Source of the DNA: Levilactobacillus enshiensis
GTDB taxonomy: Bacteria; Bacillota; Bacilli; Lactobacillales; Lactobacillaceae
DNA: 64,000 bases
Direction of reading: 5' to 3'
Assembly: GCF_007115095.1 (NCBI RefSeq)
Contig: NZ_SULH01000007.1
Location: forward strand, 61,933-125,932
Shown: in pieces, positions 8,609 to 62,957 of the stretch
Layout: each line of letters begins with the position of its first letter
Numbering within the stretch: the stretch's first letter is position 1
Translations under genes and position numbers: made by a program
The notes under the pieces: model-generated
Database searches by the model: none
What the model was told of the DNA's origin: nothing
The model's input: only the letters and a program-made list of their open reading frames with translations

Positions 8609-8992
8609 CTAAGGGTTGAAAGTTCCAAAGTACAGCTCATGCCTGTTCTACCAACAACAGTTGCTCTAAAAGTAGGCAACACAGTGATTAAGTCGCCTTA
8701 CCGGCCGGCAGCTGGTGTCGTGATAAAACCCAATCAGTGCCGGAGGAGGCCAGGGATGGAGCCAGCCGTGAAAGTGGTGTTAGCTGGCGCCTTTTCAGCC
8801 AGCTTACAGCACGGGCGACTTTGAAGACACGTGGTTTTCGTGGCTTCAAATCGAGCGAGAAGACTGGTGTTCTGCCAGGCTGAAGCGTCCCCACAGCAGG
8901 CGGAATCCCTGGCAGCCGGAGTGCGCCCAATTTAGCTTAATTTAACGGTGCAACTGCTTATCCATACTGAGATTTTATCTTTCAGCCTCTAG
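8609..8992 (+). mobile_element. MITE-like non-coding repeat, copy A (384 bp, internally deleted)
   Basis: The ends are CTAAGGGTTGAAAG and CTTTCAGCCTCTAG (imperfect inverted repeat). They are flanked by CTAATCAA (8601-8608) and CTAATCGA (8993-9000), an 8-base duplication with one mismatch. The sequence is homologous to copies at 15927, 55355 and 62341 but lacks about 240 internal bases. The junction reads cggCAGCTGgtgtcgtg, consistent with recombination between two CAGCT repeats present in the long copies. The insertion abuts the stop codon of the histidine kinase gene. No conserved protein is encoded. Confidence 0.8.
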
Positions 8993-10168
8993 CTAATCGA
9001 GACTTCCTGGTGCCTTCAAGCGTTGGGGAATCTGTAACGGGGCATCGTGTTTGACCGGCAAATGGATCACAAAGCTGGTCAGCGCATCGTCGGATTCCAC
9101 GTAAATGTACCCGCCGTGGAGCGCCACAATGCTCTGGGCAATGGCTAAGCCTAGACCCGTGCCACCAGTTTCCTTGGAACGCGATTCCTCAACCCGGTAG
9201 AACCGTTCGAAGATCATCGACAAAGACTCTTTCGGAATCTTCGGGCCATCGTTGGTCACGCGAACCTCTAATTCGGCATCGCTGATCTGTTTGGCATTTA
9301 AATTAATGTGCTTCCCGCCATCCCCGTACTTCAACGCATTGGAAACTAAATTGTTAAATACTCGGACTAATTTTTCCGGATCAGCCTCCATCATCAATAT
9401 CGCCGGGGTGCTGCTGGCGCCAATCGTCATGCCCTTCTTCTGACCTTCCAGCTCGAAGCTGGCCGCCAATTGTTCCAACATCGCTGCCAGATCAATATTC
9501 GTCAGGCTCAACGGCGTATCCGTTTGCCGCACCTTCGTGTATTCAAAGAGATCGTCAACCAACGATTTCATCTGTTTTGATTTCAGAAAGGCCGTGTGCG
9601 TGTATTTCAACAGGTCATCCGTCGAGTGGTACTGCTTATCTTCAATCAAGCCTAAATAACCAATGATCGAGGTCAGTGGCGTGCGGATATCGTGACTAAC
9701 GTTGGTAATCAGTTCGTCTTTCGACTTCTCAATTGCCCGCTCCTCATCCATCGAATGAATGACGGAATCGACCAGCGCGTTGACCGAATCGACCACCCGT
9801 TGGACGTCCCCACTGACCCGAAACGGAATCCGATGGTCAAAGTGGCCATTCGCAATGTAGTGCAATTCTTCAATGATATGGTGCAGCTGCATTTGCCGGT
9901 AACGCCGAATCAGTCGCCACCAGACGACCAATGCATCACCGATCACCATCAGGCCAATGAAGAGGTTTTCCCAACTCCACAGTTGAAAGTGATTGGGGCC
10001 GAACACGACGGACCGTTTGATAATGAAAATCCCATCCCGCAATCCGGGGTTACTCTCAATGGCCTGAATGATCAGGACCAGTAACGCCAAATTTAACATA
10101 AATAGCAGGATGACGGTCACAACGCCTTCCATGAACAGCGCGCTCTTCTCACGCGTGGTTAACTTCAT
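8993..10168 (-). CDS. Sensor histidine kinase of a two-component system
   Basis: 391 residues from ATG 10168, seven bases after GGGGGG; the upstream TTG is less likely. Two membrane segments (about 12-36 and 65-88) enclose a short external loop. A HAMP-like linker follows, then a HisKA domain with NVSHDIRTPLTSIIGYL (phospho-accepting His about 159), N-box NNLVSNALKYG, and ATP-lid GTGLGLAIAQ. It is paired with the response regulator 39 bases upstream and lies next to dacA, so a cell-wall or stress signal is likely but unproven. The stop codon coincides with a repeat-element insertion, so its original terminator has been displaced. Confidence 0.9.
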   Translation of the reverse strand: MKLTTREKSALFMEGVVTVILLFMLNLALLVLIIQAIESNPGLRDGIFIIKRSVVFGPNHFQLWSWENLFIGLMVIGDALVVWWRLIRRYRQMQLHHIIEELHYIANGHFDHRIPFRVSGDVQRVVDSVNALVDSVIHSMDEERAIEKSKDELITNVSHDIRTPLTSIIGYLGLIEDKQYHSTDDLLKYTHTAFLKSKQMKSLVDDLFEYTKVRQTDTPLSLTNIDLAAMLEQLAASFELEGQKKGMTIGASSTPAILMMEADPEKLVRVFNNLVSNALKYGDGGKHINLNAKQISDAELEVRVTNDGPKIPKESLSMIFERFYRVEESRSKETGGTGLGLAIAQSIVALHGGYIYVESDDALTSFVIHLPVKHDAPLQIPQRLKAPGSLD

Positions 10169-10207
10169 CTTGCGGCCCCCCAGCAACGCGTAAACTTACG
10201 ACTTTGA

Positions 10208-10897
10208 TTAGTGCGATTCAATCTTGTACCCCACACCCCAAACGGTTTGAATCACTTTCTCACCGTTCGTGGCATCTTCAATCTTGTCCCGCAAATGACT
10301 CACGTGGACCATGACGGTCTTGGCAGAAACGATACTCTCCTGGCGCCAAACACGTTCAAAAATCTCATCAGCGGAGAAGACCCGGTTAGGATGGCTCGCC
10401 AACAAATAGAGAATCCCAAATTCCAACGCTGTCAGTGACACCGTCTTGCCGGCGATCGTCTTGACTTCGTGAGAATCCTTGTTGATGGTCAACGTACCGA
10501 TATCCAAGATGTCAGGGCTATCATCGGTCACTTGGTCTTGGCTCCGCCGTAGCAGCGACTTGACCCGGGCCATCACCTCTAAGGGATTGAATGGCTTGGT
10601 CACATAATCATCGGCACCGGTGATCAGGCCCTGAATCTTATCCATGTCCCCCGTCTTTGCGGACAGAATCAAGATTGGAATCTGAGAATCCTTCCGCACT
10701 TCCTTCACAACTTCGATTCCGCTCATTTCTGGCATCATAATGTCCAAAATCATCAAGGCGATATCAGGCGTGGTGTGCAGTTTGGTCAGCGCCTCCTTAC
10801 CGTTGTAGGCGGTTAAGGGTTCGTAACCTTCGTTTTTAATGTAGATTTCAAGTAATTGGGCAATTTCTTTATCATCATCGACAACTAAAATTTTCAT
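10208..10897 (-). CDS. OmpR-family response regulator
   Basis: 229 residues. The receiver domain (1-115) has acidic pocket VVDDD and phospho-acceptor Asp about 52 in LMILDIMMPEMSG, plus KPF at about 101. A C-terminal winged-helix DNA-binding domain follows (about 130-226, with LTALEFGILYLLASHPNRVF and GVGYKIE). It resembles VanR/YycF-type regulators. It is first in an operon with the kinase. The 405-base upstream region should hold its promoter, but I see no clear -35/-10. Confidence 0.92.
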   Translation of the reverse strand: MKILVVDDDKEIAQLLEIYIKNEGYEPLTAYNGKEALTKLHTTPDIALMILDIMMPEMSGIEVVKEVRKDSQIPILILSAKTGDMDKIQGLITGADDYVTKPFNPLEVMARVKSLLRRSQDQVTDDSPDILDIGTLTINKDSHEVKTIAGKTVSLTALEFGILYLLASHPNRVFSADEIFERVWRQESIVSAKTVMVHVSHLRDKIEDATNGEKVIQTVWGVGYKIESH

Positions 10898-11255
10898 ATT
10901 GCGCTAATCTCCTTTGCCAGCTAGGCAATTCCACTAGCCGTCTTCCCCGTGGGTTTAATTCCATTCTAACAAATAACCCTGGCGGTGCGGCCGGAAAACC
11001 CGAACCTTTAGTCGGGCGTAAGGCACTTTACCATTCCTTAATTTTACACTATTTATTCCCGTCTAGCCAACCTCAAGTTTAACGGGGACTTAAGGCGAAA
11101 TGAGGCGTTTACGGTGAAAAATGAACTACCTGTCTCATCTCAGTATTGGTCAGGATTCACATGGCCAGTACTTTGATGTCGGATCCTCCATACCATCAAT
11201 ATTTGTATAAAGCCAACGAGAGATAAGTAGTGCCTGATGCTTATCCATTTTTTTC
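10898..11255. other. Intergenic region between the response regulator and guaB
   Basis: No gene. It must contain the minus-strand promoter of the two-component operon. A short vestige CTCATCTCAGTATTGGT (11134-11150) resembles the 3' end of the repeat family. A small stem GATAAG/CTTATC with a following T7 (11222-11254, plus strand) looks like a weak terminator with no obvious gene in front. Confidence 0.4.
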
Positions 11256-11292
11256 AAAAAAAAGCCGACCCAGAAATAACTTCTGCATCGGC
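11256..11292 (-). terminator. Terminator of guaB
   Basis: GCCGATGCAGAAG pairs with CTTCTG-like and GGTCGGC halves, followed by TTTTTTTT on the minus strand. Confidence 0.8.
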
Positions 11293-11302
11293 CAATCATT
11301 AT

Positions 11303-12466
<1,164 letters not shown>

Positions 12467-12510
12467 TCAGTCTCAGGCTCGGCTAGGAATCCTGGGAGAT
12501 ATTGTTTCTT

Positions 12511-12539
12511 AATTTACCAGTCTAGGCCACTTTGGTCAA
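12511..12539 (-). promoter_or_regulatory. Promoter of guaB
   Basis: Minus strand TTGACC (12539-12534), 17-base spacer, TAAATT (12516-12511), about 68 bases before the start codon. Confidence 0.6.
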
Positions 12540-12741
12540 GGGTTCTCATCAAACTATAACGGTATATTGAAAATAGTTGGTGTTACCTGTCTACTGCTGA
12601 ACGGCCAATTTTGGTCTAAAATCAGGCGCCTTAACTGCCGGTTGCTCGGCTGGTCACCTCTAAATTCGCTAACGGTGGATTGCCGTCTTGCCGTTCGCTA
12701 AATTTATTACCTGGCGTCAGAAATCACTGGCGGCCACCGTC

Positions 12742-14388
12742 CTACGCTTTTTTCTGAAACAACCAATAGGTGACGTTGGTACCCTCAAAGAGTTGGGTGT
12801 GGTACGCGATAGCCCGATAGCTATGGTCCAGCGTCTTGGCTAGCTTGGCCGTACCCGGATTCAGATTGCCACTAGTGATTCGACCACTGCCACCCTGCCA
12901 CTGTTTGATCGATTTGCCAGCTGGCGTGTTGAGGACGACCCATTCGACCTGGTGATGCTTGATTACGTTGGTTTGATCACGTAAAATCTGTGGATCGGCC
13001 GACTGTGAAATGTTGTAATTTTGAAAATAGTACGTCGACGGCACCGCGCCCGAAGTGGTGTAGAAGCCCATGTCGATCGACCCATAGTTTAACAGCGTCA
13101 GTTTTTGGCCAACCGGCGTACGTTGCCGCATCAACTGGCCAAAGACGACCTGGGCGGGTTGCTGTGGCTTGGTGGTTGCCTCTTCCGTAATGGCCGTGTT
13201 GTTCGGAAAGACCCGCGAGTCGGTCACGTTATTGTTGACCCCCAGAACCAAGAACAGGCTCAGCGCTAACGTCCCCAGAATAGCAAACGGTTCATCCCCA
13301 TTTGGCAACGGTACCCGCTTGAAGAATACCTGGCCAAAGTAGATCAGTGGGAGCACGAAGAAGGCAAAATAAATCAATTCATAATACTGATAGACCGCGT
13401 CCGCTTGATACCCATACAGCGCCAAAAGTGCACTCATCAGGCCAACCGCCACGTAGAGTCCCCGGGTAAAGTGGTGATGGAAGACTGCCGGCTGAAATAA
13501 AATTGCCAGCGTGCCCAAGACGCCCAAGAGGAAGAACAGGATGTTACCCAGGTAAAATTGAGCCAAAATCGAGGTCGACTGAATCAAGTTGGCGAAGAAG
13601 GCGACCGACGACGTGAGGTAGACGTGCGTGTTGAACAGAAAGTAGACCTTAATGAATGCGCCGAGAGATTTAGTCAGTAAGAAATACACCAGCCACGGCC
13701 CCGTTGTCACCACGAAACCCGCCGCGCTCCAGCCAACCAATTTGCCCAGATCCCGCCACCGCTTGTGCACCAGAAAGTACGTCCCCATGGCCAGATAGAA
13801 CATGATCCAGGCCCCCAGCAGCGTGTACTTCGACAACAGGACCACACCGACCAGTGCTCCCTGCGCAAAGTACCACCAGTGATTGGCGTGGAAATTGTGC
13901 CGGTCCAGCAATACCAATAAATAGATCAGCGAGAGCAAGAATGGCAGTGTGAAAAATTCGACCGTATCGCCATAATCGTAGTACGGGTGATACAGAAACA
14001 ACATGGGCGACAATAGCGCCACCAAAAATGCCGGTAGGGGCGCTAATCGCAACAGTTTCCCCAAACGATACGTCAGGTACATCGCCGCGACCAGTGTGAG
14101 CACCTCGTAGCCAAAGACCAGAATAAAGCTCCGTGACGACACCAGGTACGCCAAGCCATGCAAGAAGTAGACGTAAGGCCCCTTCTGCTCAAAGATATCC
14201 TTATAGGGCACGATGCCGTTCATCATCGCCTTCCCCACCGTAAAGAACGCGTTGTTGTCCGGCGAATCGTCCACGTAAAAGGCGGGTGACGTGTACGAAC
14301 AAAACAGCATGATGAACGTCCCAACAATGGTCAGTAACGCGAGATGCTGGGCGTCACGGCTCCGTAATTTTTGGCCTAATCCTCTCAT
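12742..14388 (-). CDS. GT-C type membrane glycosyltransferase, family not resolved
   Basis: 548 residues after AAGGAGG. About eleven membrane segments from residue 18 to 385, then a soluble C-terminal domain (about 390-548). The first external loop carries YVDDSPDNNAFFTVGKAM and FEQKGPYVYFLHGLAY, the acidic motif and layout of GT-C (GT39/ArnT-like) enzymes. These use polyprenyl-linked sugars outside the membrane. Such proteins in lactobacilli are often annotated as teichoic acid glycosylation enzymes; the acceptor here is unknown. The neighbouring gene encodes a secreted wall-type protein but is a separate transcript. Confidence 0.72.
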   Translation of the reverse strand: MRGLGQKLRSRDAQHLALLTIVGTFIMLFCSYTSPAFYVDDSPDNNAFFTVGKAMMNGIVPYKDIFEQKGPYVYFLHGLAYLVSSRSFILVFGYEVLTLVAAMYLTYRLGKLLRLAPLPAFLVALLSPMLFLYHPYYDYGDTVEFFTLPFLLSLIYLLVLLDRHNFHANHWWYFAQGALVGVVLLSKYTLLGAWIMFYLAMGTYFLVHKRWRDLGKLVGWSAAGFVVTTGPWLVYFLLTKSLGAFIKVYFLFNTHVYLTSSVAFFANLIQSTSILAQFYLGNILFFLLGVLGTLAILFQPAVFHHHFTRGLYVAVGLMSALLALYGYQADAVYQYYELIYFAFFVLPLIYFGQVFFKRVPLPNGDEPFAILGTLALSLFLVLGVNNNVTDSRVFPNNTAITEEATTKPQQPAQVVFGQLMRQRTPVGQKLTLLNYGSIDMGFYTTSGAVPSTYYFQNYNISQSADPQILRDQTNVIKHHQVEWVVLNTPAGKSIKQWQGGSGRITSGNLNPGTAKLAKTLDHSYRAIAYHTQLFEGTNVTYWLFQKKA

Positions 14389-23584: not shown

Positions 23585-23746
23585 TAACCACAAGCCTTTC
23601 CCGTGGTTTCAAGGCGAGCGAACAGTCTGATCTGCGGTGTGTCCCTCTTGGAGTCCCTGGCAGCCATCCTGCACCCAATTTAGAGCACTAATTTAATGGT
23701 GCAACTGCCTATCAATACTGAAACGAGGTCAGCCTTTCATCTTTAG
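23585..23746 (+). mobile_element. MITE-like repeat, copy E (3' fragment)
   Basis: About 160 bases homologous to the last third of the long copies (CGTGGTTTCAAGGCGAGCGAA, CCCTGGCAGCC, AATGGTGCAACTGCCTATCAATACTG in parts), ending in the terminus CTTTCATCTTTAG. The 5' two thirds are missing. Confidence 0.7.
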
Positions 23747-35666: not shown

Positions 35667-37205
35667 CTAAGCAATCCAGTTATTGTTGGAAGATGTGTTA
35701 TCAACAGCACCCGCTGTCAAGGTTGCATCAAAGCTGGCAGTCACATTGCCACCAAAGACAGCTAACCGGTTGTCGCTCTTAAAGAACTTATCGCTAAATG
35801 CAAACGTGTAGTGGTATGCCGTTCCATCAGTCGTGTAGAAGGTCTTGGCACCCGTGATCTTCACCTTGCCTAATTCTGTTGCAAGTTTGTCCAAATTGTC
35901 GCCTAATTGTTGACCTTTCTTACCAGAAAGTAAGGCCATTCCTTCGGTTGACAACGTAGTAAGCGTCTTAATATCTGAGCTAGTCAAGGTATTTCCGGTC
36001 TTCAATGCACCGCTAACCTTAACTTCGGCACCATTAGTTCCAATCTTATTATTAACATCGCCGACCTTCAATTGAACCTTAGAAGTAGCCGCTTCATCAA
36101 CGTTAACATAGACAGTATTACCATAAGTTGCCGTGTTAGCTAGCTTATCTGCCATTTCACCTTGAACTAACTTGTAACCAACCGGCGCTGAACCCGCAAT
36201 GAAAGCAGATAGTGTCTGACCAGCTACGTTTGTTGGCAACTTAACTTCTTTAGCTTGTTGTGTGGTCGTATCTGGCTTCACTGCCACAGCAGAGGCCGTG
36301 CTTGTGCTACCAGCCTTGGCAGTCGTTGCTTTGGTAGCAGGTGTTAAGTTTGTTGCTGGTTTTGCAGCTGCTACCGTAGGATTGACTAAGTCACCGGCTT
36401 TGGTTTTAGGTGTTGTCGTGATCCAAGTAGCCGTGCCAACCTGAGTTGAACCATGACGGTAGATAACCTTTACACTGTTGTCATTAGTTGCTTCATCTTC
36501 AGCAGTGGTAAGTGTTAACCCACCTAAGTCTTTGCTAGTAGCATCCTTGTAGCCTTCACCAGCAAAAATCCAGCCAGAAATGCTTGGATTAGATGTGCTC
36601 GTGACGTAATAGTATAAAGAACCTTCTCTAGTCTTCGTTTCGGCTTTCGTTACTTTGAAGGTATCCTTCTTGGAAGAACCATACAGGCTAACCTTGCTTG
36701 CCTTGTATGCTGTATACTTGGGCGCTGACCACAGCGTGTTCTTCTTAACATCTTTCAAGTGAAAGCCAGTCGTCCGAGTTGGTAAGGTAGCTGCCTTTGT
36801 TGTCTCAACAACCTTCACACCATCAGCAATCACACCTTGCACCTTACCACCATAAACGTAGCCACGGTACTTCCCATTCATGGAAACAACTTTGTAGTAA
36901 ATCGTTCCCCGATTGGTAACATTCATATGGTATGCGCGGAAATAATCCGTTGATTTTTTGGATTCCGCTAACTTTTTAACCATGGTCTTAGAAGCAACTA
37001 CCTTGGCACCTTTAACCGTTCCCGGCTTAGTGTAGATTGCGTTCGTTCCCGTAATCTCAACGTTCTTACTCCCATTAGGAATAGCCGTACTAGAAATAAC
37101 CGTGGCCTTAGTCGCAGCATCCGCTGTAGTTGACAGGTTAGTAACCGCCCCAAAACTCAGAACAGCGGCACCCAAATACAATGACTTCGCTAAACGTGAT
37201 TTCAT
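35667..37205 (-). CDS. S-layer protein paralogue 1 (L. brevis Slp type)
   Basis: 512 residues after AGGGGAG. A signal peptide ends around residue 30 (TTADAA). Residues about 45-260 are the conserved wall-binding part: [47 protein letters not shown] and SGWIFAGEG. The variable C-terminal part (about 260-510) forms the lattice. A Thr/Ala-rich insert at about 275-330 is absent from the two paralogues downstream of it on the map. The protein ends NNNWIA. The codon mix is less biased than in paralogue 3, suggesting lower expression. Confidence 0.9.
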   Translation of the reverse strand: MKSRLAKSLYLGAAVLSFGAVTNLSTTADAATKATVISSTAIPNGSKNVEITGTNAIYTKPGTVKGAKVVASKTMVKKLAESKKSTDYFRAYHMNVTNRGTIYYKVVSMNGKYRGYVYGGKVQGVIADGVKVVETTKAATLPTRTTGFHLKDVKKNTLWSAPKYTAYKASKVSLYGSSKKDTFKVTKAETKTREGSLYYYVTSTSNPSISGWIFAGEGYKDATSKDLGGLTLTTAEDEATNDNSVKVIYRHGSTQVGTATWITTTPKTKAGDLVNPTVAAAKPATNLTPATKATTAKAGSTSTASAVAVKPDTTTQQAKEVKLPTNVAGQTLSAFIAGSAPVGYKLVQGEMADKLANTATYGNTVYVNVDEAATSKVQLKVGDVNNKIGTNGAEVKVSGALKTGNTLTSSDIKTLTTLSTEGMALLSGKKGQQLGDNLDKLATELGKVKITGAKTFYTTDGTAYHYTFAFSDKFFKSDNRLAVFGGNVTASFDATLTAGAVDNTSSNNNWIA

Positions 37206-37421
37206 CTTTTTTTCTCCCCTAAAATTTAGTAATTGAACACCAATCAGTATAGCAAGAGTGCAGCTAAAAATGGAAGAGCGTATTTAAAATCCATCATGTA
37301 TATAATTATCATTGACCATAATTATATATATAAATATCGTTAAAATCCTTTTCCAGCCTTAATTTTCATTGGTACAATTGCTAAAAAATTTGTTTTTAAA
37401 TAATGTGATTTTTTCTCATTA

Positions 37422-37949
37422 TCAAAATAGCGTGTCATATTTCCCCTTACTTTTCCTAAGCAGTTCATCTGCATCCATTCCTGCCTTAACACACCGTTCC
37501 CAAATAAAATCGCGATGAGTATTGACAATTTCTGCAAAAATAGAACGCTCCATCAACCATCGTAGCTTAATCTCTTGATCAAAGGATTGTAATGCGACAT
37601 CATCTTCAATTTCAATCAACTGCTGTGGATCCATTGCTAAAATGACCGCAACTTCACCAATCCTCAATCCCAGATGCTTTCGGGCTAGCTTAATCTCACC
37701 TGGTTCTAGAAAGTGATATTTCTTTCGATAAAGTGCAAAATCCATCCGAAAATTATAGTCCGGATCATCCACGGGTTCTAAATACTCTTCCTCATCATCA
37801 ATTTCAACCGTGACTGGTACCCAGTAACGGTGTGTATTGGTCAGTGGCGTATCGAACATCACCACTTCTTCATCAACTTCAATCACATTAAATTCAACCG
37901 GTGCTCCCGTCAAATCCTGATGTGTTACCCTCGCAATCAATTTAGTCAT
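37422..37949 (-). CDS. XRE-family regulator within the S-layer cluster
   Basis: 175 residues after AAAAGGGGAG. The N-terminal ~75 residues are acidic and mostly beta (VTVEIDDEEEYLEPVDDPDYN in parts). Residues about 80-130 form an XRE helix-turn-helix (EIKLARKHLGLRIGEVAVILAMDPQQLIEIE in parts). A helical tail follows. The layout resembles antitoxin-type regulators of the MqsA/HigA sort, but no toxin is adjacent. Position between two slp genes hints at control of S-layer expression; this is inference. Confidence 0.65.
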   Translation of the reverse strand: MTKLIARVTHQDLTGAPVEFNVIEVDEEVVMFDTPLTNTHRYWVPVTVEIDDEEEYLEPVDDPDYNFRMDFALYRKKYHFLEPGEIKLARKHLGLRIGEVAVILAMDPQQLIEIEDDVALQSFDQEIKLRWLMERSIFAEIVNTHRDFIWERCVKAGMDADELLRKSKGKYDTLF

Positions 37950-38083
37950 CGTTCAGCTCCCCTTTTTGAAAAACACCTACTGGCAAAAATTCAACACCCA
38001 AAAAGCGCCAATTTATTTTTCTGGTTACATCTACTCACTATACAGGTCAACAACAAAACTACGGCGCAAAACGTCTTACAAAT

Positions 38084-38141
38084 AACTTCATAATAAAAAT
38101 CCCAGACCACCAACGTGATCTGGGATTTTTATTATGAAGTT
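38084..38141 (-). terminator. Very long palindromic terminator of the second S-layer gene
   Basis: Arms 38084-38106 and 38119-38141 are perfectly complementary over 23 bases with a 12-base loop. The core CCCAGA/TCTGGG is followed by TTTTTATT on either strand, so it can stop transcription from both sides. Confidence 0.9.
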
Positions 38142-38152
38142 AGAGATTAAGC

Positions 38153-39529
38153 TTAAGCTAACCAGCTGTTATCAACAGTGTTAGTAGAAGCAGCGCCCTT
38201 AACGGCCTTAGCAGTAAAGCTGGCAGTTAAAGTGTCACCGTAAGTCTTAACCCGGTTGTCGCTCTTGAAGTTCGTTGGGTTGAAAGTGAATTCGTAGTGG
38301 TAAGCATCACCATTGGCAGCGTAGTAGTTCTTCGTGCCTTTGAAGGTCGTGCTGAAACCAGATGCAATAACACCCAAGTTGTCTTGAGAAATCGTTGCGC
38401 CCTTAGTACCAGACAATGCCTTAATACCAGCAGCACTCAATGCAACAGATGCTTCGCTAGAGTTCAAAGTACCAGTCGTTAATGGACTAGTAATTGAAAC
38501 ACCTGCGTTATCAACGCTTTCAACACTCAAGCTAACCTTAGACGTTGCAGCAGCAGTAACGTCAACGTACAACGTGTTGCCGTAAGTAGCGTTAGTTGTT
38601 GAAACAGTTGCATTCGTCAATTGGAAACCAGCAGGAACTGAACTTGAAGCAAAGCTTGATAAGGTTTGCTTTGCTGCATTAACATCTTTTGTAGTGTCAG
38701 AACCTACAGTTGAACCTGCCTTAGTGTCAGTCCGAGTAGTAATCCAAGTAGCAGTACCAACTTGTGAACCGTTGTTTTGGTAAACAACCTTGACACTGTT
38801 ATCGTTAGTAGCTGCAGCTTCGGCAGAACTAGTTGATAAACCACCAAAGGTAGTAGCAGTAGCACTGTAACCAGTACCGGCAAAGATCCAGCCTGAAATA
38901 GCACTGTTTTGTTCGTCAGTTACGTAGTAGTACAAGCTACCTTCACGCGTCTTAGTAGCGGCATCTGAAACCTTGAACGTGTCAGTGTCCTTAACACCAT
39001 ACATGCTAACTTTCTTAGCCTTGTATTGGGTGTTTTGTGGGGCAGTCCAAAGGGTATTCTTCTTAGCGTTAACTAAGTGGAAGCCAGTCGTCCGAGTAGG
39101 CAAAGTAGCCTTGGTCGTCGTAGCAGCAGTCTTGATCCCACCAGCAAACGTGTCAGTGCTCTTACCACCGTAGATGTAACCACGGTACTTGCCGTTCATA
39201 GTAACGACTTTGTAGTAAACAGAGCCCTTGCTAGTAACAGCAACACGGTAAGCACGGAAGTAGTCAGCAGACTTCTTTGAATCTGCAAGCTTCTTCATAG
39301 TCGTCTTTGATGCAACAACCTTAGCACCCTTAACAGTACCTGGCTTGCTGTAAAGCGCATTGGTCCCAGTAGATTCAACGTTGCGTGTTTCAGCAGCGGT
39401 CTTCATCGTAACATCTGACTTGATTGAAGCCTTTGATGCAGCATTAGCAGAAGTGCTAACAGCAGTAACGGCACCTAAACTCAAAACAGCTAAACCTAAG
39501 TACAATGAATTCTTTAAACTTGATTGCAT
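38153..39529 (-). CDS. S-layer protein paralogue 2 (L. brevis Slp type)
   Basis: 458 residues after TTGGAGGAGC. Signal peptide to about residue 30 (STSANAA). The conserved N-terminal half has [33 protein letters not shown] and TREGSLYYYV. The lattice-forming C-terminal half ends VDNSWLA. It lacks the Thr/Ala insert of paralogue 1. In L. brevis, slpB, slpC and slpD are co-located and expressed under different conditions; the exact orthology cannot be assigned by eye. It is monocistronic with its own terminator. Confidence 0.92.
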   Translation of the reverse strand: MQSSLKNSLYLGLAVLSLGAVTAVSTSANAASKASIKSDVTMKTAAETRNVESTGTNALYSKPGTVKGAKVVASKTTMKKLADSKKSADYFRAYRVAVTSKGSVYYKVVTMNGKYRGYIYGGKSTDTFAGGIKTAATTTKATLPTRTTGFHLVNAKKNTLWTAPQNTQYKAKKVSMYGVKDTDTFKVSDAATKTREGSLYYYVTDEQNSAISGWIFAGTGYSATATTFGGLSTSSAEAAATNDNSVKVVYQNNGSQVGTATWITTRTDTKAGSTVGSDTTKDVNAAKQTLSSFASSSVPAGFQLTNATVSTTNATYGNTLYVDVTAAATSKVSLSVESVDNAGVSITSPLTTGTLNSSEASVALSAAGIKALSGTKGATISQDNLGVIASGFSTTFKGTKNYYAANGDAYHYEFTFNPTNFKSDNRVKTYGDTLTASFTAKAVKGAASTNTVDNSWLA

Positions 39530-39671
39530 GTTTGTGCTCCTCCAAAATAGAAACTAAATTTTTATAGAACTGTCATCAATCATAGCTCTATAACGACTAT
39601 CAGTATACCAATAAAAGACGGGAAAAGCTAAATTAATACAATGAACTTATGAAAAATTTACCAGAAAATAC

Positions 39672-39706
39672 AAAAAAGCCCGAATCCGAAGATTCAGGCT
39701 TTTTAT
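39672..39706 (-). terminator. Terminator of the third S-layer gene
   Basis: AAAGCCTGAATC-TTCG-GATTCGGGCTTT with a T run on the minus strand; UUCG tetraloop. Confidence 0.9.
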
Positions 39707-39745
39707 TTAACTTAGGATAAAAGCTAAATTCAATTTGGAATTGAA

Positions 39746-41173
39746 TTAAGCAATCCAGCTACTGTCTGAAGTGTTGGTAGAAGCAGGACCAGCAACTAAA
39801 GTAGCAGTAACACTAGCCTTCAAGGTGTCGCCGTAGTTAGCCAAACGGTTATCCGTAGCGAACGTAGAAGAAGGAGTACCAGTAGAAGAAGTAGTAGTAG
39901 TCAATGCATAAGTGTAGTGGTAAGCAGCACCCTTAGCATCGTAGTAGTTAGTAGTACCTTCAGCCTTAGTGATACTCAAAGCTGAATCGATGGTAGCAAG
40001 GTTAGTTTCACCAATTTGGGTACCCTTATCACCAGTCAAAGCTTTGATACCAGTTTCAGCAAGAGTTGCAGAAATTTCACTCTTTGCAACAGTAGAACCT
40101 AACTTAACACCATTAGCAACTGTACCAGCGTCAGTATTCACTTTATCAACGACAAAGGAAATCTTTGATGAAGCGGCAGCAGTAACGTCAACGTAAACAG
40201 TGTTGCCGTATTGTGCAGCGTTAGGAGTGGTTGCCGTAGTAACCTTGTAACCACTAGGTAATGAGTTAGTTACGAAGTTAGCGAACGTAACACCAGCAGC
40301 GTTGACAGCGGCAGTGTTAACAGTGTCGCCGGCCTTGGTAGCAGCATCGCCAGTCTTAGGTGAGTTTACCCAAGTACTAGTAGCAACTTGCTTGTTGCTT
40401 GCATCACGGTAAACAACCTTGACACTGTTGTCGTTAGTAGCGGCATCAGAAGCAACGTTCAATGATAAACCACCAAGATCTTGCTTAGCAGGGTCGGTGA
40501 TAGTAGTATCGTAACCCTTACCAGCGAAGACCCAGCCAGAGATTGAAGAATCTTTGCTGTCAGTTACGTGGTAGTATAATGAACCTTCTTGCGTCTTAGT
40601 AACAGCGCTATCTACAGTGAATGGATCGTTCTTAGTTGCACCGTAAAGGTTAACCTTGCTTGCCTTGTATTGGGTAAAGCGAGGGGCAGTCCAAAGAGTG
40701 TTCTTTGAAGTATCCTTCAAGTAGTAACCAGTAGTACGAACTGGGGTAGTAGCCTTAGTAGTCGTTTCAGCGGCCTTAACACCACCAGCAAAGGCGTCAG
40801 CAGACTTGCCACCGTAAACGTAACCACGGTACTTACCGTCCATAGTAACTACACGGTAGTAAACTGAACCACGGTTAGTGGTCTTAACACCGTAAGCACG
40901 GAAGTAGTTAGCAGACTTCTTTGAAGAAGCCAACGTAGCCATAGTTGCTTTAGAAGCAACAACCTTAGCACCCTTAACAGTACCAGGCTTAGTGTACAGA
41001 GCGTTTGTACCAGTAGCTTGAACGTTACGCTTAGTAGCGTCAGCGGTCAAAGTAGTATAGGCACCGGCAGTAGCATATGACTTAGCTGAAGCAGTAGTTG
41101 AAACTGCAGCAACTGAGGCAAAGCTTAAAGCAGCCAGACCCAAGTAAAGAGATTTCTTTAAACTTGATTGCAT
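39746..41173 (-). CDS. S-layer protein paralogue 3, probably the major one
   Basis: 475 residues from ATG 41173, with TTGGAGGAAG. It starts [19 protein letters not shown], nearly identical to what I recall of L. brevis SlpA, with a signal peptide ending at about residue 30 (TTASA). The N-terminal half ([20 protein letters not shown] in part, [12 protein letters not shown]) binds the wall carbohydrate; the rest assembles the lattice and ends SDSSWIA. Codons are strongly biased to GTT, ACT, GCT, AAC and TAC, as expected for a very highly expressed protein. Its long upstream region (41174-41400) is AT-rich and should carry strong promoters. Confidence 0.93.
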
Positions 41174-41574
41174 AATTTTTCTTCCTCCAAACATAATATA
41201 TGTAATTTATCAAGCAAGAATAGTATAACCGAAGTTAGCGCTTTTGTTAAGAAATTCATTCCAACTAGGTGCCAACCCGTTAAAGCCATTCCGTAACTAC
41301 AAGTATGATTATAGCCGGGAAAGCGTTTAGAAACAAGGAATATGTTCTTTTTGTCGTTGGAATGAAACAATCAGGCCGGTTCTGTAATATTTCTGTCATT
41401 TATACGCTTTATGCATTTCTTAATTAAGTGACTTAGCTTCTATATTTATCGCTTTAATTTTTGGTTCTTTAGTTATGTATAAGTTTAATGCCCCCTTAAG
41501 GTAAGTCAACTTACTTGCAAAACGTCCTCTAGCGGTCCATACTGCAAGTATCAAATGAAAGGGGGTGATGCTTT

Positions 41575-53159: not shown

Positions 53160-53275
53160 CCTAGTATTGGTCAACATTCGTACCGTTAAATTAGTCTCAG
53201 TATTGTGTGAGCACACAACGTAAGCCGAGAGGCCAGCCGGTAAGGCGGCTTAACCACTATGTTGCCTAGTTTTAG
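53160..53275 (-). mobile_element. MITE-like repeat, copy F (deleted remnant)
   Basis: On the minus strand it reads CTAAAACTAGGCAACATAG, GCCGCCTTACCGGC, then jumps to CTCTCGGCTTACGTTGTG and GACTAATTTAACGGT. The large central stem and most of the second domain are missing. It lies between copB and the MmcQ gene. Confidence 0.65.
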
Positions 53276-53301
53276 ATACATTTACATTTAGGTTCATACA
53301 A

Positions 53302-55354: not shown

Positions 55355-55961
55355 CTAAAGGTTGAAAGATAAAATTCAGGTCTGATTTCAGTATTGATAA
55401 GCAGTCAAACCATTAAATTAGACTAAATTGGGCGCACTCCGGCTGCCAGGGATTCCACCAGCTGTGGGGACGCTTCAGCCTGGAAGAACACCAGTCTTCT
55501 CGCTCGCTTTGAAGCCACGAAAACCACGTGTCTCCAAAGTCGCCCGTGCTGTAAGCTGGCTCACCAGCTAACACCACTTTCACGGCCGGCTCCATCCCTG
55601 GCCTCCTCCGACGCTGATTGTGTTTTATCAAGACAACGGCTATAGTCCACAGCCATCTGACGTTTTGAGCTTCAATTGATAACGACCATTACGGTTATTC
55701 TCAGAGTTTTCTGAGAACACAATGTAAGCCGAGAGGTCGGCAGATATGAGCTCAGGCGCGTCGTTCTACTTAGTCAGTAAGTGATTTTCTTACTGGCTAA
55801 GTAGAAAACCAAGCTTGTAGACTCGGTTATTTCGAGGCTTCAAGCTGTGTTCGCACCGATCCGGCCCATAGCTGCCGGCCGGTAAGGCGACCCTGCCTAG
55901 TCTTAGTCTCAGTGTTGTTAGAACAGGCATAGGCCCTACTTTGAAGCTTTCAACTTTTAGA
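55355..55961 (-). mobile_element. MITE-like non-coding repeat, copy C (607 bp, complete)
   Basis: The ends CTAAAGGTTGAAAG and CTTTCAACTTTTAG match as an inverted repeat at 13 of 14 positions and are flanked by GATAGTAA (55347-55354) and ATAGTAA (55962-55968). The interior matches the copies at 15927 and 62341 in reverse orientation, including both large helices. One hairpin loop (TTAGCTGGTGAGCCAGCTTA) is shorter than in the others, while its stem is intact. It lies between the EamA gene and the FusB-like gene. Confidence 0.88.
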
Positions 55962-58035: not shown

Positions 58036-58130
58036 GGTCATGCTCGTTTTAAACTAAAAACAACATGGTGGTTGGGTTCGCCTTACTGCCCGGCAGATAT
58101 AGGCTGGCTCGGTGCGAATACAACTACTTC
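58036..58130 (+). mobile_element. MITE-like repeat, copy G (5' fragment, degenerate)
   Basis: AACAACATGGTGGTTGGGTTCG, TTACTGCCCGGCAGATATAGGCTGG and TCGGTGCGAATACAACT (in parts) match the first third of the long copies. No second half or terminus is present. Confidence 0.6.
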
Positions 58131-58172
58131 CCCATACTAGAATAATCTGGATTTCATCTTTCTTTATCAGCT

Positions 58173-58230: not shown

Positions 58231-58231
58231 A

Positions 58232-58795
58232 TTATTTCGCTAATGATTTAATGACCTTCGCTGGCACGCCACCAACCAACGTGTTTGCTGGAACGTCCTT
58301 GGTCACAATGGCACCGGCCGCAATCACGACATTATCACCGACCGTGACGCCCGGCATAATTGCGACCTTCCCGCCGATCCAGACATCATTTCCAATCGTC
58401 ACCGGCTTGGCTTGGGCTAGATAAGCCCGTCGGCCAGTCGCCGTCATGGGATGGTTGACCGTGTAAATATCAACGTTGGGGCCAATCATCACGTGATTAC
58501 CGATGGTCACAGGGGCGATATCTAAGATCGTCAAATTATAATTGCTCAAAAAGTCTTCACCAACGTGAATGTTCTGGCCATTATCGCAATTAAACGTTGC
58601 CTGAACCGAAACGCGCTCACCGTGGCTCCCCAATATTTCTTTGATTTTAGCCGTCTGCGCTGTTGGGTCAGTCGCTGGAATCGCGTTAAACTCTTGACAC
58701 AATTTAGCCGCCCGCGCCTTGCGCGCCGCTACCTCCTGATCTAAGAAATAATACGGTTCCCCTGCTTCTAACTTCTGTAACTCACTTTCTGCCAT
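58232..58795 (-). CDS. Maltose/galactoside O-acetyltransferase family, second copy
   Basis: 187 residues from ATG 58795, eight bases after GAGG. The same architecture as the 57450 gene (Maa domain, then hexapeptide repeats [20 protein letters not shown] and [20 protein letters not shown]; histidine in TVNHPMTA). The two proteins are clearly related but well diverged, so the duplication is old or one copy was acquired. Convergent with the first copy. Confidence 0.9.
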
Positions 58796-58934
58796 TTCTT
58801 TCACCTCAAGTTTAGTCTACCACTGAGCTGCCTAAGAAAATACGGTGTTGATTCGCAACCACTATGACAGCAATCCGCTCAGTTGCGATGATCACTGTCT
58901 TCATCTATGCTAATTCCAACCAGGAGGTCTTCCC

Positions 58935-59351
58935 ATGACAACACTGATTGCCCACGCCTTAATTGCCACCCCAGCCGGCTACCTGCTCCTTCAACGAACA
59001 CCTGTCGAGCGCGGCCAATCCAACATTTACCCGCTATTTTGGGACATTCCTGGCGGTCGCACACAGCCCCACGAGACTGCCCGCCAAGCTGCTAAGCGGG
59101 AATGCCTTGAAGAAACAGGGCTTCACATTCAACCGACCACCATTATCGGCATCACAACCACCTATGATCAAAACCAGGAGCAACGCTTCACCCGGCTAAT
59201 TTTTACCGCCCACTTGCTCACGCCACTCACCGATTTAAAGCTGAATACCGCTGAGCACGGCCGCTATGCTACCTGTACGTCACTAGCAACTTGGCCAGCG
59301 GACCAGCAACTCGTTCCTTATCTCCGCAATCTGTTGACGACTGCCAATTAA
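58935..59351 (+). CDS. NUDIX hydrolase
   Basis: 138 residues after AGGAGG. The Nudix box is complete: G41-x5-E47-x7-R55-E56-x-L58-E59-E60-x-G62-L63 (GRTQPHETARQAAKRECLEE in part). The N-terminal HALIATPAGYLLLQR strand and IPGG precede it. It hydrolyses nucleoside diphosphates linked to another group; the substrate is unknown. Monocistronic. Confidence 0.92.
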   Translation: MTTLIAHALIATPAGYLLLQRTPVERGQSNIYPLFWDIPGGRTQPHETARQAAKRECLEETGLHIQPTTIIGITTTYDQNQEQRFTRLIFTAHLLTPLTDLKLNTAEHGRYATCTSLATWPADQQLVPYLRNLLTTAN

Positions 59352-59402
59352 AAAGGGTTGTGTCGATTACCCACTTAGCTGGTAATCGACGAAACCTTTT
59401 CA
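59351..59402. terminator. Bidirectional terminator between the NUDIX and surface protein genes
   Basis: GTCGATTACC/GGTAATCGAC within a longer AAAAGGGTT/AACCTTTT stem, with T runs on both sides (T11 on the plus strand). Confidence 0.85.
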
Positions 59403-59417
59403 CTTTTTTTTTTTAAT

Positions 59418-60419
59418 TTAAGCGATCCAACCACCGGTGCTCAGCACACTCACACTGCCAGTCGGGGCGACCTTGACGGTGTACCGGTACCCTTGAATAT
59501 CAAAGTCGGCATGGGCCTTGATATTCAGATTCTTCGTGCTCTGCGTAAAGGCCTGACTGCTAACGACCTTGCCATGAGCATTACGGTTCGTTAATTTGAC
59601 GGCCTTGCCCGCTTGGAAATCATAGATGGCCGTTTGACTATCCTGTTGTAATAAGACAACGCGTTGGACATTACCATTGGCGGTTGCGACCCCCACCTTA
59701 ACGTGACCCGCTTCATCGACCGTCGTGGTAGCCGTGGTAGCGGCCAGGTCACGAGTCAATTCGCGCTGCAGGAGATTTGGATAAGTGCCCTTGATAACGG
59801 CGTTGACGGGTAACCAACCGATGGCCTTGCCTGCCGCCGTTTCAAAGTAGAGGTACTGCTTCTTATTGATCGTCGTCAATGACTGAATCGCGTACAACGT
59901 CCGGTAGCCGTAGGAGTGACCATAGTGATTTGCCGCCGTGGTTCCCAACGTCTTCTTAGGCATGTTCCAGAAGTCATTGTTCGTCGTTGGCGTCCAGTAA
60001 GCGGTCTTCTTTACACTGGTCAGCTTACTGATCTGCTGATGGAATTTTAACTGGCTCAGTGCCACATAGCCGCCGACCAAGGTCGTGTTGGCCTTGCTGG
60101 GGTTCGGCACAGCGGTCCCGTGAGGCAAAGCTTTGGTCGTCACTTTGGCCAGGCGCACGTAGCGTTTGCCATTGACCTTGATGACCTTATCGACTGTCCA
60201 CTGCTTCGTAGTACTCTTGTCCGTCCCCAAGACCGTGCTCTTCGCGTAAGCTGCGCGCGGATAGCTGTACACCTTAGTTCCCTTAGCTTTAAATGTGAAA
60301 ATCCGTTGCTGGGGGTATTCTGGCAACGTGACTTTTTTAGCCGCATGGGCGGTCGTGCTGCCTCCCCACAAAATCAGTCCCAGACTGCCCGCCATTGCCA
60401 ACTTAATCCAGTTCTTCAT
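59418..60419 (-). CDS. Secreted surface protein with SH3-like segments, S-layer-like C-terminus
   Basis: 333 residues after GAGGAGCGCAC. Signal peptide to about residue 27 (STTAHAA). The middle contains SH3/GW-like pieces: YSYPRAAYAKSTVLG, KTAYWTPTTNNDFWNMP and LYFETAAGKAIGWLPVNAV, comparable to the wall-binding repeats of the Slp proteins. It ends TGGWIA, the same W-[IL]-A terminus as the three S-layer paralogues at 35-41 kb. Its smaller size and distance suggest an accessory S-layer-associated protein. Confidence 0.7.
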   Translation of the reverse strand: MKNWIKLAMAGSLGLILWGGSTTAHAAKKVTLPEYPQQRIFTFKAKGTKVYSYPRAAYAKSTVLGTDKSTTKQWTVDKVIKVNGKRYVRLAKVTTKALPHGTAVPNPSKANTTLVGGYVALSQLKFHQQISKLTSVKKTAYWTPTTNNDFWNMPKKTLGTTAANHYGHSYGYRTLYAIQSLTTINKKQYLYFETAAGKAIGWLPVNAVIKGTYPNLLQRELTRDLAATTATTTVDEAGHVKVGVATANGNVQRVVLLQQDSQTAIYDFQAGKAVKLTNRNAHGKVVSSQAFTQSTKNLNIKAHADFDIQGYRYTVKVAPTGSVSVLSTGGWIA

Positions 60420-60566
60420 GTGCGCTCCTCCTCAGAAGTTACCTGTCAACATCTCTTCCTCAACCTATTCGTCATTTTCCCGAAACGGTTCGTCCTAGTC
60501 ACACACCGTCCCATTAATTTATCAAAAAAACATTAAAGTAGCTTTACTGAAGTATACACCAAAAGA

Positions 60567-60609
60567 CAATTAATTGTGCGCGATAATCACTATCCGTAAC
60601 AATTAATTG
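60567..60609. promoter_or_regulatory. Duplicated palindrome CAATTAATTG upstream of the surface protein gene
   Basis: CAATTAATTG at 60567-60576 and 60600-60609, themselves palindromic, flank GATAATCACTATC. It lies about 150-190 bases before the surface protein start and downstream of pepD: an operator or large hairpin. Confidence 0.4.
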
Positions 60610-60693
60610 CCTTTTAGGGTTTATTTAGCTGAATTCTGGGTTGCTCTTAAAACGTTTAATCTAAAAACCAATTGGTCTACGACTCACGGTCGA

Positions 60694-62115
60694 TTACAGG
60701 TTTTGGCCCTTTTCCCAAACCGTCTTGGATAACAGCAGGCCCTGCTTAACCAAGTCATTGAACAACGCATGTGTCCGCTTAGAAATTTCACCGGCCGTTT
60801 CCAAATTGCTCTGCGTCAGGTAAGTTGTGGCGTCACCGGTGATGTTGTCATCGGTAGCCGCAACCCGACCGCGGGCATAGGATTGGCACCCATCGCGGAA
60901 GGCGTTGACCGTGGCGACGAACTCGTGGAAATGCGGTTCGATCAGAACGGACAAGGTCTTGTTCAACCAGTACACGTTGTCGACGGAAACTTCAGTCGTC
61001 GTATTCTTGTAGTCTTCCGGCGTGTCATTGATGTTCGTGAAGAATGGCATGTATGGCGCATAGGCAAAGAAGCCCATGGCGACCCACTGAATCGCAGCGT
61101 GGTCAGCCGGCACATCGTTACGAATTTGCAAGATGGATGAGCATTGATTCCGGTCCATCGCGATCGAACGGTACTTCTTCTGATCATCGGCGTTGCCTGA
61201 AGCAAATGTCCCAAATGGATCGTAAGGCGTGCCGTTGTAGTGGGAAGACAGGAAGAATTGAACGTCTTCAATCGCGATCTTCTTGGCTGGCTTCCGGGTA
61301 AATGGCATGTCTTGGTCAGTTGGGTGTTGGTCGGTAATTTCTGGATTAAATAACTTTTGGCCGTACCAGGTCCGTGGCGTGTTGTAGTACGCGTCATCTT
61401 CGCCGTGCGTGCCGAAGATTTCACGGAAGTTAAAGGTACCTGGGACCGGGTTCAAGTGGTGCTTCTCCACGAAGTCCACTAAGTCCGTAGCAACCAAGAA
61501 GTTATCGGTATCGTTTAAATCGACCTCTTGCATCAACGTCTGGTTGGGCGCAATGGCGTAGGTGTCTTCTGGCAACCGCATTGCGGCCCAGTGATGGCCC
61601 CCAGCCGTTTCCAAATACCAGATGTCATTGTGGTCGTTAAAGGAAATACTGTTGCTTTCGCCCGTCCCGTACTTTTCAATCAGGGCACCCAGACGTTGGG
61701 CCCCTTCTTTAGCACTCTTAATGTATGGCAAAACCAAGGTGATCATGGCTTCTTCATTGATGCCGTCGTCGACGAGTGGGTCGTAGCCCAACACGCGGGC
61801 GTTGGTCGCCGTGGTCTCAGTCGCACTCATGCCGACGTTCAATTCGTTAATGCCGGCCTCTTCATATTGGCCGTCACTTTGGTCAGCCTGTGGCGTCCCC
61901 GTATAGCGGTAGGCGTGGTCGGGTAATGGCACGTTGACGCCAGTCGTGATCGACGTGAACGATGCCCCCGTTTGGTCTACTGCTGGGTGGACCACAAACT
62001 TGATGGGATTGATGGGGCCGTAACCATCCTCGTTACGCGCCACAATCGTGGAACCGTCCATGCTAGCGGCTTTACCCACTAAAATCTCAGTACAATCGGA
62101 ACTCTTTTTCATCAT
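60694..62115 (-). CDS. pepD: Dipeptidase PepD (peptidase C69)
   Basis: 473 residues; ATG 62115 after AAGGGGGCGG. The N-terminal nucleophile cysteine is about residue 8 (SSDCTEILVGKAASMDGST in part), so the few residues before it are removed on maturation, as in other C69 enzymes. NEDGYGP and ISFNDHNDIWYLETAGGHHW (about 160) are conserved family segments. It cleaves a broad range of dipeptides in the cytosol. Its start codon could also be the next ATG (62112). Monocistronic. Confidence 0.93.
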   Translation of the reverse strand: MMKKSSDCTEILVGKAASMDGSTIVARNEDGYGPINPIKFVVHPAVDQTGASFTSITTGVNVPLPDHAYRYTGTPQADQSDGQYEEAGINELNVGMSATETTATNARVLGYDPLVDDGINEEAMITLVLPYIKSAKEGAQRLGALIEKYGTGESNSISFNDHNDIWYLETAGGHHWAAMRLPEDTYAIAPNQTLMQEVDLNDTDNFLVATDLVDFVEKHHLNPVPGTFNFREIFGTHGEDDAYYNTPRTWYGQKLFNPEITDQHPTDQDMPFTRKPAKKIAIEDVQFFLSSHYNGTPYDPFGTFASGNADDQKKYRSIAMDRNQCSSILQIRNDVPADHAAIQWVAMGFFAYAPYMPFFTNINDTPEDYKNTTTEVSVDNVYWLNKTLSVLIEPHFHEFVATVNAFRDGCQSYARGRVAATDDNITGDATTYLTQSNLETAGEISKRTHALFNDLVKQGLLLSKTVWEKGQNL

Positions 62116-62277
62116 TTGATGTTCCGCCCCCTTCTTCATTCTAGTATAAGATTAACTTTTGATTAGAGCTAGGGATTTCGCAAAATTCGCTGAATTGTCA
62201 GTGACTTTGTCCGTTGTCGTTGGCTGCGAATCGTCAGTCATATTTCCGAATAGCCAATCATTTTGCCTAAATTTGGC

Positions 62278-62310
62278 AAAAAAAAGAAACTAGACAATTT
62301 CTGTCTAGTC
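62278..62310 (-). terminator. Terminator, probably originally of the P-type ATPase gene
   Basis: ACTAGACA/TGTCTAGT stem followed by TTTTTTTT on the minus strand. The nearest upstream minus-strand gene ends at 63039, with repeat copy D in between. Confidence 0.75.
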
Positions 62311-62340
62311 TCTTCAGGTTTGCTTAGATTAAGTTAACCG

Positions 62341-62957
62341 TTAAAAGTTGAACTCCCCATGCCAATTCTAGCAACAACAGTGGTCCTAGAACTAGGCAAC
62401 TTGATGGACTAGTCGCCTTACCGGCCGGCAGATATGAGCTGGATCGGTGCGAACACAACTTGAAGCCTCGCAAAACACGAGTCTACAAGCTTGGTTTTCT
62501 ACTAAGCCAGTAAGAAAAACACTTACTGACTAAGTAGAACGACGCGCCTGAGCTCATATCTGCCGGCCTCTCGGCTTACATTGTGCTTTCGGACGACTTT
62601 GAGAATAACCGTAGCGATCGTTATCAGTCGAATGCAAAAAAAGTCAGGTAGCTGTATTTTACAGCCGTTGTCTTGATAAAATACCGTCAGCGCCGGAGGA
62701 GGCCAGGGATGGAGCCGGCCGTGAAAGTGGTGTTAGCTGGCGTTTTTCTTAGCCAGCTTACAGCACGGGCGACTTTGAAGACACGTGTTCTTCGTGGCTT
62801 CAAATCGAGCGAGAAGACTGGTGGTCTTCCAGGCTGAAGCGTCCCCACAGCAGGCGGAATCCCTGGCAGCCGGAGTGCGCTCAATTTAGACTAATTTAAT
62901 GGTGCGACTGCTCACCAATACTGAGATGAAGAGCCGGATCTTATCTTTCAAACTTCA
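62341..62957 (+). mobile_element. MITE-like non-coding repeat, copy D (617 bp, complete)
   Basis: Flanked by GTTAACCG on both sides (62333-62340 and 62958-62965). The ends TTAAAAGTTGAA and TTTCAAACTTCA are imperfect inverted repeats. A 17-bp perfect helix joins 62424-62440 with 62551-62567, and GCCAGGGAT (62702-62710) pairs with ATCCCTGGC (62859-62867). It lies between the P-type ATPase stop and the terminator at 62278-62310. Confidence 0.88.

What the first reader, a model, noticed from the sequence alone, without database searches (positions are those of the whole stretch)
8609..62957. A ~600-bp non-coding mobile repeat family (MITE-like) with at least seven copies in 64 kb
Copies at 8609, 15927, 55355 (reverse) and 62341, plus fragments at 23585, 53160 and 58036, share one sequence but encode no conserved protein: frames differ by indels between copies. 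Three complete copies end in imperfect ~14-bp inverted repeats (around TTGAAAG/CTTTCAA) and have direct repeats of 7-8 bases (CTAATCAA/CTAATCGA, ATAGTAA, GTTAACCG). That is the signature of transposition by a transposase in trans. Seven copies in 64 kb is very dense. I do not recognise this as a described element.
Basis: partly seen in the sequence, partly recalled or inferred. Interest (0 to 1): 0.85.

Follow-up and report, generated by a model that had tools for sequence, protein, structure and literature searches.

The report
Folded mobile repeats in lactobacilli
The repeats are small non-coding mobile elements, with up to more than a hundred copies in some genomes, built around one intricately folded 175-base unit shared by many lactobacilli; its role and what moves it are unknown.

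Summary
The repeat family is real, mobile-looking and far larger than the window shows. This Levilactobacillus genome gives 132 matches to its core unit at E<=0.001, some partial. Ends follow a 14-bp inverted repeat (CTAAAGGTTGAAAG). Of 23 copies with both ends recognised, 11 carry a 7- or 8-bp target duplication, against 0.6 in shuffled pairings. No Rfam family matches (window; one copy). A structure taken from Levilactobacillus fits D of two other genera: 93.5% of cells pair against 75.4% shuffled. G-U against A-C asymmetry suggests RNA read outward from the element's centre, unproven. Left ends lie beside terminator-like hairpins more often than right ends (22 against 8 of 41). No autonomous element with these ends was found, though the search was partial. 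Verdict: a family-wide variant of bacterial MITE with an elaborate conserved fold.

The parts
8601..9000 (+). copy A with target duplications (CTAATCAA 8601-8608, CTAATCGA 8993-9000); element 8609-8992, D1 mostly missing
   Evidence: locus L041
8733..8938 (+). D2 module of copy A (outward strand)
   Evidence: covariance model R2, 54.0 bits, full length
   Evidence: locus L022
15999..16176 (-). D1 module of copy B
   Evidence: R2 144.0 bits
16269..16474 (+). D2 module of copy B
   Evidence: R2 53.8 bits
55348..55967 (-). copy C (reverse) with 7-bp target duplications ATAGTAA; element 55355-55960
   Evidence: locus L009
55420..55618 (-). D2 module of copy C
   Evidence: R2 39.5 bits
55724..55901 (+). 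D1 module of copy C
   Evidence: R2 132.2 bits
62334..62965 (+). copy D with 7-bp target duplications TTAACCG; element 62341-62958
   Evidence: locus L001
62402..62579 (-). D1 module of copy D
   Evidence: R2 154.4 bits, E 3.2e-43
62686..62892 (+). D2 module of copy D
   Evidence: R2 53.2 bits
23649..23723 (+). fragment: right end of an element
   Evidence: blastn 81-82%
53191..53282 (-). fragment with part of D1
   Evidence: blastn pieces 83-89%; R1 25.7 bits at 53220-53260
58061..58125 (+). fragment of D1
   Evidence: blastn 87-88%

Best explanation
A non-autonomous mobile element family of Lactobacillaceae. SHOWN: the core is a ~175-nt module D that folds into an outer stem carrying two hairpins; D occurs singly, as a divergent pair or in small arrays; in Levilactobacillus the pair is enclosed by 14-bp inverted ends and many copies have a 7-8 bp target duplication; one end tends to lie next to a terminator-like hairpin. 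INFERRED: a DNA-cutting enzyme acting in trans on the short ends moves it. INFERRED (about 0.6): the folded molecule is RNA, read from the element's centre outward or by read-through, so that whichever way the element is read the distal D folds correctly. INFERRED (about 0.4): the fold is needed in cis for the element's own spread, for example because the mobilising protein recognises D in folded form, rather than for a host function.
For: Inverted ends and target duplication. Divergent pairing among neighbouring listed hits: 38 of 39 in the own genome, 15 of 15 in G018, 12 of 12 in G281, 5 of 7 in G032. One module: model R1 built on D1 hits D2 on the other strand, and R2 hits the four D2 of the window full length. 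D against linkers in 38 of 41 own copies: pairwise difference 0.07-0.10 against 0.27-0.36. Fold: 32 of 50 pairs with two-sided changes across genera; 93.5% paired against 75.4% shuffled and at most 48.7% when slid; mean energy z about -7 on both strands of 21 representatives. Strand: on pairs predicted for both strands the outward strand has G-U in 40 columns and A-C in 15 (A1+A2+A5). Dispersal in another genus: seven of eight fetched G082 loci share one single D at 89-98% identity at different places. Terminator bias: 22 of 41 left flanks against 8 of 41 right (my count from the rows; P 0.0026).
Against: No mobilising enzyme or autonomous element was found. Strand evidence is uneven: the column test is significant alone only for A1, composition-corrected z-scores favour the outward strand in only 13 of 21, and G-U pairs are few. 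The corrected selection test does not separate private from shared changes, so it does not tell whether the fold serves mobility or the host. The D used were found with a model that contains the tested structure, which favours it. No clean empty site for a complete copy.
Confidence: 0.62

Rival explanations
1. The fold matters as DNA, not RNA: D forms hairpins in single-stranded or supercoiled DNA that a recombinase reads, as ends of IS200/IS605-type elements do (recalled).
For: Both strands fold almost equally well (mean z -6.9 and -7.3); wobble pairs are rare and A-C intermediates exist; insertion beside terminator hairpins suggests that hairpins are recognised.
Against: G-U exceeds A-C on the outward strand in three alignments together (40 against 15 columns). 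IS200/IS605-type elements lack inverted ends and target duplications (recalled); both are present here.
Confidence: 0.13
2. D is a host-used RNA element at gene ends that spread by mobility but is kept for function, as proposed for ERIC, BOX and Correia repeats.
For: Convergent gene pairs 15, divergent 5, tandem 18 among 38 of 41 loci with both neighbours called; many G018 arms abut terminators on both sides (by eye); within-genome transitions keep pairing 40 to 23, taking all kept one-sided changes as transitions (P 0.04); one-sided changes keep pairing more often than the 0.31 expected in that script, in private (27 of 58) and shared (13 of 25) changes alike (P 0.015 and 0.03), though with the transition share observed I estimate the expectation nearer 0.38.
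Against: Sites turn over between close species: at the 55-kb site G002 carries another D type and G013 has lost it. Many copies are truncated. Lying at gene 3' ends is also what selection against harm would leave.
Confidence: 0.17
3. An ordinary IS-derived MITE with palindromic ends whose compensated changes come from palindrome correction by template switching, not from selection on a fold.
For: D1 and D2 are inverted copies and each D is a quasi-palindrome; such repeats can be corrected during replication (recalled).
Against: Correction would erase loops and bulges, yet several unpaired loop positions are among the most invariant across genera while stems vary.
Confidence: 0.08

Closest known systems
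Prokaryotic MITEs in general (review PMC10969869, passages seen)
   Same: short inverted ends, target duplications, intergenic or 3' location, no transposase, highly paired transcripts; QMITE2 has 7-9 bp direct repeats
   Different: no autonomous partner found; core fold kept by compensated changes across genera; the string 'lactobacill' does not occur in that review's main text
BOX elements of Streptococcus pneumoniae (PMC3049150, passages seen)
   Same: modular interspersed repeats of another member of the Lactobacillales, predicted folded transcript; the passages mention similarity of BOX ends to an IS
   Different: boxA and boxC with tandem boxB between; here one ~175-nt module is repeated in divergent orientation (tandem units occur in G112). 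No sequence comparison with BOX was run
CIR repeats (PMC2229807, passages seen)
   Same: two folded arms joined by a linker, proposed structure conserved between Caulobacter and Brucella
   Different: arms there are inverted repeats; here each arm is a two-hairpin module with conserved loops
ERIC and Correia/NEMIS repeats (passages seen)
   Same: folded mobile intergenic repeats that can change mRNA stability
   Different: about 100-200 bp long stem-loops in other bacteria; no sequence test run here
IS110 bridge RNA and group II introns (recalled)
   Same: structured RNA tied to mobility; group IIC introns also insert after terminators
   Different: no Rfam match of any kind in the window or one copy; inverted ends and target duplication present; bridge RNA not tested

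Membership tests
MITE (non-autonomous DNA transposon) | terminal inverted repeats | tested here: met
   14-bp consensus ends, 57+65 hits against 16+12 control; 23 copies with both ends
MITE (non-autonomous DNA transposon) | target site duplication | tested here: met
   11 of 23 copies, shuffled mean 0.60; two lengths, 7 (6 copies) and 8 bp (5 copies)
MITE (non-autonomous DNA transposon) | no transposase gene, many copies | tested here: met
   no frame of 80 aa or more in the 55355 and 62341 copies; 132 D matches in the genome
MITE (non-autonomous DNA transposon) | an autonomous element with the same ends | tested here: inconclusive
   none in 311 overlapping loci nor at the exact end repeats fetched; the whole genome was not scanned
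MITE (non-autonomous DNA transposon) | empty orthologous sites with a single target copy | tested here: inconclusive
   G009 and G010 lack the 62341 element but the spacer is too diverged to align; G002 has another D there
Any Rfam RNA family | score at or above a family's gathering threshold | tested here: not met
   window: 0 matches; L003 copy with lax filters: 8 microRNA-model matches, all far below threshold
Structured nucleic acid (new) | compensated base changes beyond controls | tested here: met
   the sequences were found with a model holding the structure
Structured RNA (new) | strand polarity (G-U tolerated, A-C not) | tested here: inconclusive
   40 against 15 columns pooled, P 0.001; single sets P 0.003, 0.18, 0.38; z-scores 13 of 21
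Structured RNA (new) | transcription | not testable with these tools
   no expression data
REP/BIME (RAYT-mobilised) | no inverted ends and no target duplication (recalled) | tested here: not met
   both present

The most novel reading that the evidence does not exclude
D is a new class of large structured RNA that is itself the mobility signal: an RNA-dependent (or folded-strand-dependent) transposition system of Lactobacillaceae in which an unknown enzyme recognises the fold in the element and terminator hairpins in the target.
Probability: 0.2. Interest if true: 0.9.

Novelty: new variant of a known kind. Interest (0 to 1): 0.62.

Why it matters
A covarying fold of this size that matched no Rfam family here, repeated up to more than a hundred times per genome in food bacteria, is a large natural data set on a mobile folded element and a test of whether such repeats survive by serving their own spread or their host. 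Because the elements often lie beside terminators they may shape gene ends and read-through. The covariance model gives a direct way to annotate them, and the missing mover is a defined target to look for.

Tried and rejected
Rejected or not supported: a known Rfam family, group II intron included; a protein-coding element; a plasmid- or phage-borne element: of four D queries against 72,556 plasmids three found nothing and one found two Levilactobacillus brevis plasmids, nothing in 50,697 phages (one query), nothing in viral contigs for one exact pattern of the Levilactobacillus type. One search queried an unrelated window gene against plasmids: no match.

Autonomous element: the 3.1-kb span between two end repeats in L103 holds a histidine kinase and a response regulator gene and ordinary element pieces. 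In 311 overlapping loci 46 facing pairs of ends were seen, 40 of them 400-699 bp apart; the three spans over 750 bp hold kinase, response regulator or YfhO-like frames. Ten open frames next to D in other species: eight have ordinary Pfam domains, two have none; further frames of the 16 loci were judged by eye only. Against this: in one of the seven G082 copies (L319) an IS30-like frame (helix-turn-helix and integrase-core domains) lies beside the element; I take it as a chance neighbour because it is absent from the other six, but did not test its ends.

Selection test: one search suggested neutral private and selected shared changes, but it used the wrong strand for D1 and counted sequences. 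(right strand, events) gives one-sided private 27 kept to 31 broken and shared 13 to 12; two-sided private 8 to 3 and shared 4 to 1; no difference, so the first result is withdrawn. Closest-pair D/linker ratios are biased by the choice of pairs and not used.

Origin bias: in G018 (dnaA at base 337) the 89 listed of 122 hits, 74 loci, leave a 788-kb gap opposite the origin (approximate P 6e-10). G032 leans the same way, G005 and G030 do not (by eye), so it is not a family rule.

Alignment A6 mixed in Levilactobacillus D2 and was not used for a model. The script failed and was corrected. Literature: eight searches showed no description of these repeats in their listings; only open-licence papers are held. 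PMC10969869, PMC3049150, PMC2229807 and PMC2267715 were seen as passages only; all others as listings.
Full report
WHAT IS THERE. The window's copies at 8609, 15927, 55355 and 62341 and three fragments are one family. In the whole genome (G000, 3.07 Mb, 57 contigs) blastn gave 53 pieces with 40 of 163 candidates scored. Covariance model R2 gives 132 matches to the core module at E<=0.001, some partial, with 150 of 845 candidates scored. The genus is Levilactobacillus: same-genus handles have contigs of exactly the lengths of named records of L. andaensis (343,311), L. koreensis (16,954), L. hammesii (338,728) and L. fujinensis (145,060). 32 of 35 genomes of the genus, the own one included, have blast matches.

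ENDS AND TARGET. The alignment of own copies shows consensus ends CTAAAGGTTGAAAG and CTTTCAACCTTTAG. With up to two mismatches they occur 57 and 65 times against 16 and 12 for the control. In 23 copies with both ends recognised (19 of 41 loci, plus 4 loci fetched because both ends were seen) flanking bases agree beyond shuffled pairings only at lengths 7 (z 4.5) and 8 (z 3.8). At least 6/7 or 7/8 matches occur in 11 of 23, against 0.60 expected and 4 at most. Window copies A, C and D have duplications of 8 (7 matching), 7 and 7 bases. A terminator-like hairpin within 75 bases was detected at 22 of 41 left ends and 8 of 41 right ends (counted from the rows; Fisher P 0.0026). Neighbouring genes, called only as open frames of at least 80 aa, were convergent 15, divergent 5, tandem 18 in 38 of 41 loci.

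ONE FOLDED MODULE. Two blocks, D1 and D2, are far more conserved than the linkers (38 of 41 own copies). A model of D1 (R1) hits D2 on the opposite strand, and in another genus finds clear inverted pairs 25-46 bases apart (L134, L139, L142). So the element is a divergent pair of one module. Among neighbouring listed hits 38 of 39 pairs (G000), 15 of 15 (G018), 12 of 12 (G281) and 5 of 7 (G032) have this orientation. Other layouts exist: small arrays in G112, two or three D in tandem followed by one inverted, and single D in all eight G082 loci fetched. Seven of those eight share one D type at 89-98% identity at different places, with imperfect inverted ends of their own (11 of 14 by eye).

DISTRIBUTION. 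R1 finds D in 72 of 301 genomes of the family, 13 of 40 genera. R2 finds 24 of 395 in the order, 7 of 80 genera, all in this family, and only the own genome among 398 of the class. These large searches use strict filters and score few candidates per genome, so absences are soft. Genera other than Levilactobacillus are unnamed here. Copy numbers per genome vary: 9 matches in G082, 39 in G281, 63 in G155, 122 in G018, 146 in G237 (R1, at most 150 candidates scored each). Two L. brevis plasmids carry a full-length D (97.5 and 100.8 bits) beside a peptidase gene.

THE FOLD IS REAL. Within the genus 13 of 53 pairs of D1 and 24 of 50 of D2 show changes on both sides. Across genera 32 of 50 do, covariation term -10.9. 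As a stricter test the structure taken from Levilactobacillus D1 was laid on 31 D, 29 from one other genus, one from a second and one from Levilactobacillus: 93.5% of cells pair against 75.4% in shuffles, 276 two-sided cells against 83, and at most 48.7% paired when slid. Two cautions: those D were found with model R1, which holds this structure, and they are related, so the shuffle count is not a probability; the slid control keeps relatedness. One measure, further pair types, is not above shuffles (82 of 500 reach it). No Rfam family matches the window or the L003 copy.

WHICH MOLECULE. On pairs predicted for both strands the outward strand (from centre to end) has G-U in 40 and A-C in 15 columns over A1, A2 and A5 (one sequence is in both A1 and A5). 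Consensus energies favour it (-82.2 against -55.3; -63.7 against -26.8; -72.8 against -60.9). Against this, z-scores corrected for composition favour it in only 13 of 21 representatives, although raw energies do in 20 of 21, and G-U pairs are few. RNA is more likely than DNA, not settled.

WHAT THE FOLD IS FOR. A first test seemed to show that resident copies decay freely while the spreading lineage is constrained. Done on the right strand and by events the contrast disappears. A role in mobility and a host role both stay open. At the 55-kb site G002 has a D of another type (41.5 bits) and G013 lacks it, apparently by deletion between short repeats at the foot of the stem (by eye).

WHO MOVES IT. 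Unknown. Of ten open frames next to D in other species eight have ordinary domains and two none. End pairs in 311 overlapping loci show no long element with a transposase. An IS30-like frame lies beside one of seven G082 copies, probably by chance.

VERDICT. A family-wide MITE-like element with an exceptionally elaborate conserved fold. Known kind: folded MITEs such as BOX, ERIC, Correia and CIR (passages). New as far as eight literature searches show: the module, its divergent pairing, its range and its conservation.

Noticed in passing
G018 contig C1, 929-1717 kb: In this near-complete Levilactobacillus genome none of 89 listed D hits (of 122) lies in the 788 kb opposite dnaA; G005 and G030 do not show this.
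   Followed up: partly
L189:1348-1542 and L191 (G002 and G013, site of window 55.3 kb): A D present in one species and missing in a near relative, with breakpoints at short direct repeats at the stem base: looks like loss by deletion.
   Followed up: partly
L176, L178, L179, L184 (G018): One type of element arm carries a constant terminator-like hairpin (AGCTCTGTAAAAC...) outside D, while other arms abut varied terminators (by eye).
   Followed up: no
window 36415-41195: Three related long open frames (70-74% identical DNA stretches) in a row, an apparent local gene family.
   Followed up: no
window 38083-38142: A 60-base near-perfect palindrome (90%) just upstream of the frame 38153-39529.
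   Followed up: no
L331:1551-2157 and L332:1467-2190 (G112): Arrays of two or three D in tandem followed by one inverted D, reminiscent of modular BOX repeats.
   Followed up: partly
L306 and L307 (L. brevis plasmids NZ_CP021461.1, NZ_CP103392.1): Rare plasmid-borne D just after an S8 peptidase gene.
   Followed up: partly
L319:2196-3233 (G082): IS30-like transposase frame next to one of the recently dispersed single-D copies.
   Followed up: partly
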